NCBI GenBank assembly: GCA_012735575.1 | Contig: JAAYGY010000042.1 | Span: 1 to 62,801 of the forward strand | Reading direction: 5' to 3' | Length of the DNA stretch: 62,801 nt | Source: Clostridiales bacterium | Lineage (GTDB): Bacteria; Bacillota; Clostridia; Caldicoprobacterales; UBA3941 | Part shown: piece by piece, positions 50,595 through 54,032 of the stretch | How the letters are laid out: the number at the start of each line of letters is the position of its first letter | Numbering within the stretch: position 1 is the stretch's first letter | The notes under the pieces: model-generated | What the model saw: only the letters and a program-made list of their open reading frames with translations | Databases searched by the model: none | What the model was told of the DNA's origin: nothing | Program-made: the position numbers and the translations under genes

Positions 50595-52460
50595 CTAGTT
50601 AAGTCCCAGTTCCCTTCTCTTCTTCTCAATATGATCCACATAGATCTGAACAGTCTTTTCTGCATCCATTTCTACTACAACCTTGCCTAACCCTAAAGTT
50701 TCTGTAGTTTCTGTCAATGTTTTTACAACAAGGTCGCTACCTGTTATTGATGGAACTGGGGCTATATGAACCAGCCATCCCAATGCCACAGCAGTGCAAG
50801 CATCAGCTACAGCTTTTTGTTCTAGGTATTCTGGCGCACCAATTACCAATGGCAGTTTATTAGTATCTACATCCAGAGCATCAGCTAACTCCTTAGCTGT
50901 ATGGGTCATCTTTCCAATATCTACACAAGCACCATAGGATAATACAGGTGGTATTCCTAATTGCTGACACACTGTTTTTAGCCCTTCACCACACTCCTGG
51001 GCAGCTTTGGGGTTTGCAAGACCTGTATACTCCATTACTGCAGAAGTGCAACCACCTGATAATAGAAGAATATTGTTTTCAATTAATCCTTTAGCTATTT
51101 TGAATATGTTGCTTCCACCTTGACCATATCTTGCAGTAGTACATCCTACTATTGTTGCAATTCCTCTAATGTTTCCATTGGCAATTTGTTCTATTAAAGG
51201 ATCAAAGCTTCCTCCTAATGCTTTCTTTATAGACTCGGTACTAAAGCCCACCATACAATTGGAAACATGGGGAGGTATATAGATTTTCCTATTTTCGGAT
51301 TTGCGAGCCTTAAAAGCTTCAATTGCCATATCTAGAGCCTTTGCTGCCTGCTCCCTCATTTTTTCTGGCATAAAATCTAAGGTATCTGTACCTTGAAGCT
51401 TAATAACGGGATGAGTGCTTAGAAGTTTGGTACCAAAACGTTTTGCAAAGATAGGCATTGTTGGTACAGTACAGTTATAATCAAAAATAAATAAATCCAC
51501 CGCTCCTGTTGCCAGTAAATATTCCTGAGATAGCCACTCACCTTCTTGCCCTCCATATGCTCTCTGGTTATGAGTTCCCTCATAGTTAATGAGTTGCTGT
51601 CCTTCACAAACATGTCCAAGTATTTGAATGCCTTCTGCCCCCGCTGCTTTAGCTTTCTGCTGCCATTCATCGGTAGAAGCTAAGTCAATGGCCACATGTG
51701 CCAGAAGGGGCATATGACCATTAGTGACTATGTTTACCATATTTTCTTTTAACAGCCCCATATTCTGTTGTTTCATTTGTATTTCTTGGGTACCCATTAG
51801 AATTTCTTGAATTATATCTAATAGAAATAATCCCTGATATTCATTAGCAATACCTAGTCGTACGCTGTTTAATAAAAAATCCACTGGATCAGAGGAAAAA
51901 TTCGTCATACAGCGAGTCTGAGCATAAGCTACTTCACTGTAACCACCACCGGGAAACAAACCAAGCTTTCTCCAAAGTTCCTTTCTTCTAGTAGGAGCAA
52001 AAACCTCTACTGCCTTAGATTCAACATGATGAGGTGAATGGATATCGTCCATTACCCACTGGGCAAAATCTACTGCAATCTTTTCTATAGGTTGGTTAAT
52101 ATTCACTCCTGCCATATCAGCGTATTTTTTTAACTTTTCTGGGTCACGGATTTTAAGCCCGCTTTCTGGATGTTCTCCAGCAGCTTTTAAGGTTCTGGCA
52201 GCCTGATGACAGTGGAATATATTGGCTGATGTACCTATGGTTACATGCCGATAGACAAAGTTCCTAGCAACCATAGTATGTGCATCCACACCACAAACGC
52301 CTCTTGGGGCCCTTTTGCTAATTCTACAGGGACCATTGGCACAAAGCTGGCAGGACAAGCCTTCAATACAGAATTTGCATTGGGTGGGTTGCTGCTGACT
52401 AAATCTATCAAAAACATTTGTTAACCCTGCATTATGTACTACTTGATACATTTCCCTCAT
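50595..52460 (-). CDS. cooS: Anaerobic Ni-CO dehydrogenase catalytic subunit CooS, main part
   Basis: 621 residues from ATG 52460. Cysteine-rich N-terminus for clusters D and B (C28, C31, C37, C40, C45 in CKFCIEGLSCQLCANGPC), then cluster C ligands in GHVCEGQQL, NCTVPTMP, GCTTARYGQGG, GGCTSAVMEY and YGACVDIGK. It oxidises CO to CO2 or the reverse with ferredoxin. There is no ribosome site before 52460, and the same frame stays open upstream for 22 more codons to a TGA, beyond which a 66-codon piece with a perfect site continues it. The gene is thus one 710-codon frame with an in-frame TGA. No acsB, cooF or cooC nearby. Confidence 0.88.
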   Translation of the reverse strand: MREMYQVVHNAGLTNVFDRFSQQQPTQCKFCIEGLSCQLCANGPCRISKRAPRGVCGVDAHTMVARNFVYRHVTIGTSANIFHCHQAARTLKAAGEHPESGLKIRDPEKLKKYADMAGVNINQPIEKIAVDFAQWVMDDIHSPHHVESKAVEVFAPTRRKELWRKLGLFPGGGYSEVAYAQTRCMTNFSSDPVDFLLNSVRLGIANEYQGLFLLDIIQEILMGTQEIQMKQQNMGLLKENMVNIVTNGHMPLLAHVAIDLASTDEWQQKAKAAGAEGIQILGHVCEGQQLINYEGTHNQRAYGGQEGEWLSQEYLLATGAVDLFIFDYNCTVPTMPIFAKRFGTKLLSTHPVIKLQGTDTLDFMPEKMREQAAKALDMAIEAFKARKSENRKIYIPPHVSNCMVGFSTESIKKALGGSFDPLIEQIANGNIRGIATIVGCTTARYGQGGSNIFKIAKGLIENNILLLSGGCTSAVMEYTGLANPKAAQECGEGLKTVCQQLGIPPVLSYGACVDIGKMTHTAKELADALDVDTNKLPLVIGAPEYLEQKAVADACTAVALGWLVHIAPVPSITGSDLVVKTLTETTETLGLGKVVVEMDAEKTVQIYVDHIEKKRRELGLN

Positions 52461-52526
52461 AGCTGGATCTATTATTACATTTAAAGGATATCCTTCCTTA
52501 GGCTGGTCACCTTTTGCAATATGTTC

Positions 52527-52727
52527 TCATTGCCACCTATGTACTTCTTCCATATCTGACATCTTGTCAATATTAGTGTAATCTATGCTTATCCTTTCAT
52601 GGATATCCTCGTGTAATGCAGGATCATTATAATCCTCTTTGGTTAAGCTAGCTGCAAAGGTTTGTTGATCCCCTCTCATCCTTTGGGCGCTCCGCTCATA
52701 AGATTTTTTTATATCATTGTCTGACAT
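52527..52727 (-). CDS. N-terminal segment of cooS upstream of an in-frame TGA
   Basis: 66 residues, ATG 52727 behind GTAGGAGG. It reads MSDNDIKKSYERSAQRMRGD and ends DMEEVHRWQ before TGA (52527-52529). The frame is the same as cooS (distance 267 = 89 codons), and the 22 codons after TGA (EHIAKGDQPKEGYP...) are open and run into MREMYQ. The piece is not recognised as any separate protein. It is most simply the beginning of cooS cut by a nonsense codon; other options are a separate leader peptide, selenocysteine or read-through. No convincing SECIS hairpin was found behind the TGA. Confidence 0.65.
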   Translation of the reverse strand: MSDNDIKKSYERSAQRMRGDQQTFAASLTKEDYNDPALHEDIHERISIDYTNIDKMSDMEEVHRWQ

Positions 52728-52729
52728 TT

Positions 52730-52784
52730 AAAAACCTCCTACTTTCATAATCATAGTTTCTACACTATTCTTTGTTGTAGGAGG
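52730..52784 (-). terminator. Hairpin combining terminator and cooS ribosome site
   Basis: On the minus strand CCTCCTAC (52777-52784) pairs with GTAGGAGG (52735-52742), with an inner ATAGT/ACTAT helix in the loop and TTTTT after the stem. It is both a possible terminator of the MFS gene upstream and the only ribosome site of the cooS frame, so the stem would hide that site. Confidence 0.6.
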
Positions 52785-52796
52785 CTTAAATATACT

Positions 52797-54032
52797 TTAT
52801 TGTGCTTTTCCTTTTCTCATAAAAGATATGCCTAAAAGCATTATTACCGGAAAAATCATAGCTGTAAATAATCCTGCCTTTAACCCTAACTGTTCTGGAT
52901 CTAAATTAACTGTATGCCCCATAGCTAGCAGTCTGTTGGATTTTTGTGCCAGATCAGATACTAGCCCTGCCATCCAAGGTCCAAAGGATGCACCAATATC
53001 TCCAAATACAGCAAGCATACCAAACATTGCCGTCCCTCCATTAGAGAATTTTTCAGCTGATAAACTGAGAGTTCCCGGCCACATTAGGCTAACGGATAGC
53101 CCACAAAGGGCGCAGCCCAATAAAGCTATAATAGGTGCCTGAACAAATACAGTGGTTCCATAGCATAGGACACAGAGAATACTAGATGCCATCAATGCTT
53201 TTCTAAGATCAATCTTGTGCCCCCAAATTCCATAAACCGTCCTCCCGGTAGCTTGGAAAAAGGCAAAGAATGCTGGCCCCAATAGATCACCAACCACCTT
53301 GGATACTTTTAATCCCTTTTCTGCGAACAATGACGACCACTGGGACATGGTCAATTCGGATGCACCTGCGCTCATCATTAACACTAGAGCAATAATAAAT
53401 AAATGGGAAGATAATAATCTCTTTATAGGCATTTTTTCCTCATCTGAGACTATGGGCATAAGGGGTACTCGTAAAAATTTAAACAGATTATATGCAGGTA
53501 TCATAGACCACATTATAGGCAATAAATTCCATATACCGTTTCCAAACGCTTTTATTATTAAAGTGGATATAATTACTACGGCTAGTTGTCCCCAGCAATA
53601 AAATGAATGTAATAAGCTCATTGCTGATGCTTTTGCATCTCCAGGCAAGGATTCTACAATTGGACTAATTATAACCTCAATTAGTCCACCACCTATAGCA
53701 TAAATAATTACAGAAATAGCAAGACCTATATATGGGCTTGGAAATAATATGGGTAAAACACCTAAACCTACCAATCCCAAAAAAGCAAAAAAATGTGCTA
53801 ATACCGCAGCAATTCTATAACCTATCCTGTCTACATACTTAATGGCTAATATATCTGTTATAATTTGAGTAGTAAAATTTATTAAAATAAGCCGACCAAT
53901 CTTTTCAAAAGAAATACCAAAATTATCATGAAATATAACAAAGAGTAATGGTGCAAGATTATTTACTATGGCCTGTGTTATATAACCTAGATAGCATGCG
54001 TATAATGTGCTCTTGTATGTAGTAGATCTCAA
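52797..54032 (-). CDS. MFS transporter (sugar/FucP-like type)
   Basis: 411 residues with twelve membrane helices. Begins LYACYLGYITQAIVNNLAPL, with IKYVDRIGYR as the loop 2-3 motif; the later GPAFFAFFQATGRTVYGIWG belongs to the equivalent region of the second half. Like many Firmicutes members it is annotated as a general MFS permease; its substrate cannot be read from the sequence. Start is TTG 54032 behind AGGAGGAAG. cooS follows by 70 bp in the same direction. Confidence 0.85.
   Translation of the reverse strand: MRSTTYKSTLYACYLGYITQAIVNNLAPLLFVIFHDNFGISFEKIGRLILINFTTQIITDILAIKYVDRIGYRIAAVLAHFFAFLGLVGLGVLPILFPSPYIGLAISVIIYAIGGGLIEVIISPIVESLPGDAKASAMSLLHSFYCWGQLAVVIISTLIIKAFGNGIWNLLPIMWSMIPAYNLFKFLRVPLMPIVSDEEKMPIKRLLSSHLFIIALVLMMSAGASELTMSQWSSLFAEKGLKVSKVVGDLLGPAFFAFFQATGRTVYGIWGHKIDLRKALMASSILCVLCYGTTVFVQAPIIALLGCALCGLSVSLMWPGTLSLSAEKFSNGGTAMFGMLAVFGDIGASFGPWMAGLVSDLAQKSNRLLAMGHTVNLDPEQLGLKAGLFTAMIFPVIMLLGISFMRKGKAQ

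What the first reader, a model, noticed from the sequence alone, without database searches (positions are those of the whole stretch)
50595..52727. CO dehydrogenase frame interrupted by a single in-frame TGA
ATG 52727 (with a perfect ribosome site) opens 66 codons that end at TGA 52527-52529. The 22 codons after TGA and the 621-codon cooS body are in the same frame and have no further stop. The downstream ATG 52460 has no ribosome site. So the natural gene is one 710-codon frame with a stop at codon 67. It may be a nonsense mutation, a sequencing error, a read-through or recoded codon, or a leader peptide.
Basis: partly seen in the sequence, partly recalled or inferred. Interest (0 to 1): 0.6.

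Follow-up and report, generated by a model that had tools for sequence, protein, structure and literature searches.

The report
CO dehydrogenase gene with premature stop
A bacterial carbon-monoxide dehydrogenase gene carries a single stop codon where all 51 readable relatives have arginine, most simply a recent one-base nonsense mutation (or a sequencing error) in an otherwise intact gene, not an encoded special amino acid.

Summary
On the minus strand, 52727-50595 is one 710-codon frame with a single TGA at codon 67 (52527-52529), an AGGAGG ribosome site before ATG 52727 and none before ATG 52460. It is one gene: intact relatives in Clostridia and Negativicutes align through the 66-codon piece into the cooS body. 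All 51 copies covering the site have arginine at codon 67, inside a conserved VHKWQREHI motif. The two nearest have AGA, so one A>T change makes the TGA. Selenocysteine is very unlikely: no relative has Cys or Sec there, and no selA, selB or tRNA-Sec was found. No UGA-reading tRNA was found among 39 detected tRNAs, and TGA ends other genes here. The body shows no decay, so the stop is recent, leaky or an error. The expected product is a 66-residue peptide without metal ligands, i.e. a null allele of the genome's only detected CODH. Loss of this gene recurs: three relatives carry decayed copies, and three same-family genomes gave no match. Low-level readthrough, shown in Clostridium autoethanogenum acsA, is possible but has no specific evidence here. 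The reads, which would separate mutation from error, are not available. Ordinary; low interest.

The parts
50595..52727 (-). cooS, anaerobic Ni-Fe CO dehydrogenase catalytic subunit: 710 codons interrupted once
   Evidence: TIGR01702 664 bits over residues 87-709, cut-off 478; only Prismane-domain match in the genome
52527..52529 (-). premature stop TGA at codon 67, Arg in all 51 scored relatives (AGA in the two nearest)
52530..52727 (-). codons 1-66: first three quarters of the conserved N-terminal extension of this CODH group; the only part expected to be translated efficiently
   Evidence: aligned in relatives; dN/dS about 0.04-0.08 between relatives; no Pfam match of its own
52461..52526 (-). 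22 codons between the TGA and ATG 52460; conserved (EHIAKGDQPKEGYPLNVIIDPA)
50598..52460 (-). catalytic body starting at Met90, open throughout; holds the B-, C- and D-cluster cysteines; would need internal initiation without a ribosome site
52732..52742 (-). ribosome binding site TAGGAGGTTTT upstream of ATG 52727, also present in the two nearest relatives
52797..54032 (-). upstream MFS transporter gene, same strand; same neighbour in the two nearest relatives
   Evidence: PF07690; synteny L050, L051
48948..50528 (+). convergent FAD-dependent oxidoreductase with Rieske domain; same neighbour in L050, unbroken
   Evidence: PF01266 + PF00355

Best explanation
A single base substitution (AGA to TGA at codon 67, Arg to stop) interrupts an otherwise intact, vertically inherited, monofunctional CO dehydrogenase gene. 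Translation starts at ATG 52727 and ends after 66 residues, before any metal-cluster cysteine, so the allele is expected to be null or nearly null. Because the rest of the gene shows no decay, the stop must be recent on the branch leading to this genome (or a polymorphism in the population). Shown: the stop, the arginine in all relatives, the one-base path, the intact body, no selenocysteine machinery found. Inferred: that the base is real in the cell, and that no functional enzyme is made.
For: 51 of 51 homologues that cover the site have Arg there (AGA 27, AGG 8, CGN 16); none has a stop, Cys or Sec. The two nearest relatives (93% and 90% identical proteins) have AGA with no indel nearby. 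The body is intact and constrained: on the window's branch 8 replacement to 67 silent codon changes in codons 89-710, on the sister branch 16 to 77, so there is no long history as a pseudogene. The gene is dispensable in this group: three same-family genomes gave no match, one of them 98% complete, and three other relatives keep only decayed copies (L098 lacks residues about 220-529; L102 and L104 keep fragments). Published: in-frame stops in bacterial genes mostly persist only on the time scale of population polymorphism (PMC7918605), and in C. autoethanogenum cooS1 loss was tolerated and even shortened the lag on H2 + CO2 (PMC4895105).
Against: Reads are not available, so a wrong base in a draft consensus (105 contigs) cannot be excluded. 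The lack of decay in the body is equally what readthrough or an error would give. This is the only CODH found in the genome, which might favour keeping it.
Confidence: 0.65

Rival explanations
1. The TGA is a consensus error or a minority allele picked up in assembly; the organism's gene is intact.
For: Draft genome of 105 contigs, 96.3% complete; the change is a single isolated base in a gene with no other lesion.
Against: Four flanking genes align in full with relatives without any break and no other split gene was found in 62.8 kb, so the consensus is generally good. Nothing specific points to an error.
Confidence: 0.2
2. The TGA is real but leaky: a near-cognate tRNA (probably tRNA-Trp with anticodon CCA) reads UGA at low frequency and some full-length CooS is made.
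For: Precedent in a CODH gene: C. autoethanogenum acsA has an internal TGA in place of a Ser codon and makes some full-length protein, apparently without selenocysteine (PMC4895105). TGA is the leakiest stop. The genome has a tRNA-Trp(CCA), and the body is still constrained.
Against: No relative shares the stop, so it is not a conserved recoding site. The RNA after the TGA folds only modestly better than shuffles (z = -1.8, 12 of 200 shuffles as good). No UCA-anticodon tRNA was found among 39 tRNAs. The acsA stop lies in a different CODH type at a different position (about codon 401).
Confidence: 0.1
3. Translation restarts at ATG 52460 and yields a 621-residue enzyme without the N-terminal extension, which corresponds to the length of typical CooS.
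For: TIGR01702 covers residues 87-709 and solved CODHs align from about residue 74-93 onward, so the body could fold on its own. ATG 52460 is the first in-frame start after the stop.
Against: No ribosome site, and 66 bases lie between the stop and the next start. Relatives keep the extension under strong constraint. In C. autoethanogenum acsA the piece after the stop was not translated on its own (PMC4895105).
Confidence: 0.04
4. Selenocysteine is inserted at codon 67.
For: In-frame TGA with the frame open on both sides.
Against: Relatives have Arg, never Cys or Sec. No selA match; selB model finds only matches below its cut-off in proteins shaped like EF-Tu and other translation GTPases; the one tRNA-Sec-model hit over cut-off is tRNA-Ser(TGA); selD matches stay below cut-off. 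The genome is 96% complete, so a small gap remains.
Confidence: 0.01

Closest known systems
cooS of the nearest relatives (L050 JAAYKZ010000133.1, L051 JAAYTG010000178.1; also Geosporobacter, Thermotalea, Anaerosolibacter)
   Same: Same gene, same 710-codon length, same N-terminal extension, same upstream MFS neighbour in the two nearest
   Different: Arg codon (AGA in the two nearest) instead of TGA at codon 67
Clostridium autoethanogenum acsA with internal TGA (PMC4895105)
   Same: In-frame TGA in a Ni-Fe CO dehydrogenase gene of a Firmicute, sense codon in all relatives, no clear selenocysteine role
   Different: CODH of the acetyl-CoA synthase complex, stop near codon 401 replacing Ser; essential for autotrophy; readthrough shown by Western blot. 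Here a stand-alone CooS, stop at codon 67 replacing Arg, no CdhC/ACS match in the genome, no expression data
Decayed cooS in Clostridium folliculivorans (L098), Clostridium sp. OS1-26 (L104) and a MAG (L102)
   Same: Independent loss of the same gene
   Different: Lost by deletions and frame breaks rather than by one nonsense codon

Membership tests
Anaerobic CO dehydrogenase catalytic subunit (CooS, TIGR01702) | Score above the curated cut-off over the full model | tested here: met
   664 bits against cut-off 478, model positions 3-621 of 621, with the TGA read through
Anaerobic CO dehydrogenase catalytic subunit (CooS, TIGR01702) | Cluster-binding cysteines present | tested here: met
   The Cys of CKFCIEGLSCQLCANGPCR and the other invariant Cys columns are conserved in the window protein and its relatives; ligand roles are taken from knowledge of the family
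Anaerobic CO dehydrogenase catalytic subunit (CooS, TIGR01702) | One continuous translated frame | tested here: not met
   TGA at codon 67; so it is a cooS gene, but perhaps not an expressed CooS enzyme
Selenoprotein | selA, selB, selD and tRNA-Sec in the genome | tested here: not met
Selenoprotein | Cys or Sec at the aligned position in relatives | tested here: not met
   Arg in 51 of 51
Selenoprotein | bSECIS hairpin just downstream of TGA | tested here: inconclusive
   A weak stem with z = -1.8; no dedicated SECIS search was run; no Rfam match in the window
Pseudogene by nonsense mutation | Stop at a position that is a sense codon in orthologues | tested here: met
Pseudogene by nonsense mutation | Relaxed selection or further lesions | tested here: not met
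   No other lesion; 8 replacement against 67 silent codon changes in the body. Expected for a recent event, so not decisive
Pseudogene by nonsense mutation | No functional product | not testable with these tools
   Needs protein or activity data
Stop-codon readthrough gene | Full-length product detected | not testable with these tools
   No expression data

The most novel reading that the evidence does not exclude
The TGA is a real, leaky stop that keeps a stand-alone CO dehydrogenase at a low level, a second independent case in a CODH gene of what was reported for C. autoethanogenum acsA.
Probability: 0.1. Interest if true: 0.4.

Novelty: new member of a known kind. Interest (0 to 1): 0.12.

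Why it matters
Little in general: nonsense alleles are common in bacterial genomes. It matters for annotation (one broken cooS, not a leader peptide plus a short CooS) and for predicting this organism's metabolism: the presence of cooS should not be read as proof of CO oxidation, since the only CODH gene found in the genome carries a stop. If readthrough were shown, it would be a second CODH gene using a leaky UGA.

Tried and rejected
Selenocysteine: no machinery found, relatives have Arg. General UGA reassignment: 6 of 42 long frames in the window end in TGA, and no UCA-anticodon tRNA was seen (the tRNA set is incomplete, 39 found). Two separate genes or a leader peptide: relatives have one frame. 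Relaxed selection after the stop: not seen in the body; replacement changes look somewhat denser in the N-terminal part on this branch (5 to 15, against 8 to 67 in the body) but not significantly (Fisher p = 0.14). Structure: an AlphaFold2 model of the intact relative (26 sequences, mean pLDDT 70) puts residue 67 in a helix, 59-72; it is too uncertain to say what the extension does, and no fold search was run. First DNA alignment used wrong locus coordinates and was redone. A first attempt at handing in the report was incomplete.

Full report
Observation. On the minus strand, ATG 52727 follows TAGGAGGTTTTTAA and opens a frame that runs to TAG 50595. It contains one internal stop, TGA at 52527-52529, codon 67. 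The frame is otherwise open for 710 codons. The first in-frame start after the TGA is ATG 52460 (codon 90), with no ribosome site before it.

One gene, not two. With the TGA read through, the protein scores 664 bits against the CO dehydrogenase model TIGR01702 (cut-off 478) over residues 87-709. The first 88 residues are outside that model, but they are not foreign. The same-genus relative (93% identical) and a same-family relative (90%) match from residue 1 to 710 without a stop, and so do most of the 55 loci found among public genomes of Clostridia and Negativicutes. Between the two nearest intact relatives the N-terminal 88 codons have dN/dS about 0.08 and the body about 0.03; silent sites are near saturation, so these are rough. 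The extension is thus a conserved part of this CODH group. It has no Pfam match of its own, and solved CODH chains align only from about residue 74-93 onward.

What the stop replaces. Of 51 homologues that could be scored at codon 67, all have arginine: AGA 27, AGG 8, CGG 6, CGC 4, CGT 4, CGA 2. It sits in the motif VHKWQREHI, where W65, Q66 and H69 are invariant in 26 aligned sequences. The two nearest relatives have AGA, so one A-to-T change gives TGA; there is no indel nearby.

Recoding. There is no selA match. The selB model finds only matches below its cut-off, in proteins that look like EF-Tu and other translation GTPases by size (identification by inference). The single tRNA-Sec-model match over cut-off is a tRNA-Ser with anticodon TGA. 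selD matches remain below cut-off. No conserved RNA family is present, and the 64 bases around and after the TGA fold only modestly better than shuffles (z = -1.8). Among 39 tRNAs detected none has anticodon UCA; tRNA-Trp has CCA. In the window 6 of 42 long frames end in TGA. Selenocysteine and general reassignment are therefore set aside, with the caveat that the genome is 96.3% complete in 105 contigs.

Age of the stop. Counting codon changes with the next relative (L051) as reference, the window's branch has 8 replacement and 67 silent changes in codons 89-710, and the sister branch 16 and 77. There is no relaxation (Fisher p = 0.27). The gene was under selection for most of the time since the split from its nearest relative. 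A recent mutation, an error in the consensus, and leaky readthrough all fit this equally. The neighbourhood (RelA/SpoT-like, MFS, cooS, convergent FAD-Rieske oxidoreductase, PNPOx-like) is the same in the nearest relative and unbroken, and a same-frame scan of the window found no other split gene, so the consensus is not generally poor.

Dispensability. This is the only Prismane/CODH-family gene found in the genome, and no CdhC/acetyl-CoA synthase was found, so it would be a stand-alone CooS. Three other genomes of the family gave no match (G003, G004, G005). Three further relatives hold broken copies: Clostridium folliculivorans L098 (residues about 220-529 missing and a frame change), a MAG contig L102 (fragments 513-589 and 694-710) and Clostridium sp. 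OS1-26 L104 (last 21 codons). Repeated loss makes a nonsense allele unsurprising.

Mechanism. Most likely (0.65) a real, recent nonsense allele: initiation at ATG 52727, termination after 66 residues, no cluster ligand made, no CODH activity. A consensus error is next (0.2). Low-level UGA readthrough (0.1) has a direct precedent in another CODH gene, C. autoethanogenum acsA, where the internal TGA gives mostly truncated and some full-length protein and selenocysteine is considered unlikely (PMC4895105). Nothing in the present sequence singles this site out for readthrough. Internal initiation at Met90 (0.04) lacks a ribosome site. A survey of bacterial in-frame stops finds many genes still under purifying selection and stops that persist only briefly (PMC7918605), which agrees with the picture here.

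Verdict. The finding is true and is one more member of a known kind, a nonsense-interrupted gene. Its biological interest is low unless expression data show readthrough.

Noticed in passing
L098:5001-6190; L102:5001-5283; L104:5001-5063: Decayed copies of the same cooS in Clostridium folliculivorans (internal deletion of about residues 220-529), a Clostridiales MAG (two fragments) and Clostridium sp. OS1-26 (only the last 21 codons): independent losses of this gene.
   Followed up: partly
window 52461-52727 (minus strand): The roughly 88-residue N-terminal extension, with the motif VHKWQREHIxKxDQSKEGYPLNVIIDP, is conserved in this CODH group, lies outside TIGR01702 and has no counterpart in the solved CODH chains found; its role is unknown.
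   Followed up: partly
L052 and L053: Geosporobacter ferrireducens carries two intact copies of this cooS, each 89% identical to the window's protein.
   Followed up: no
window 52362-52377 region (residues 117-129): The cysteine motif CKFCIEGLSC differs from the C-x7-C D-cluster motif recalled for C. hydrogenoformans CODH-II and resembles the CxxC type recalled for the Desulfovibrio enzyme; not tested.
   Followed up: no
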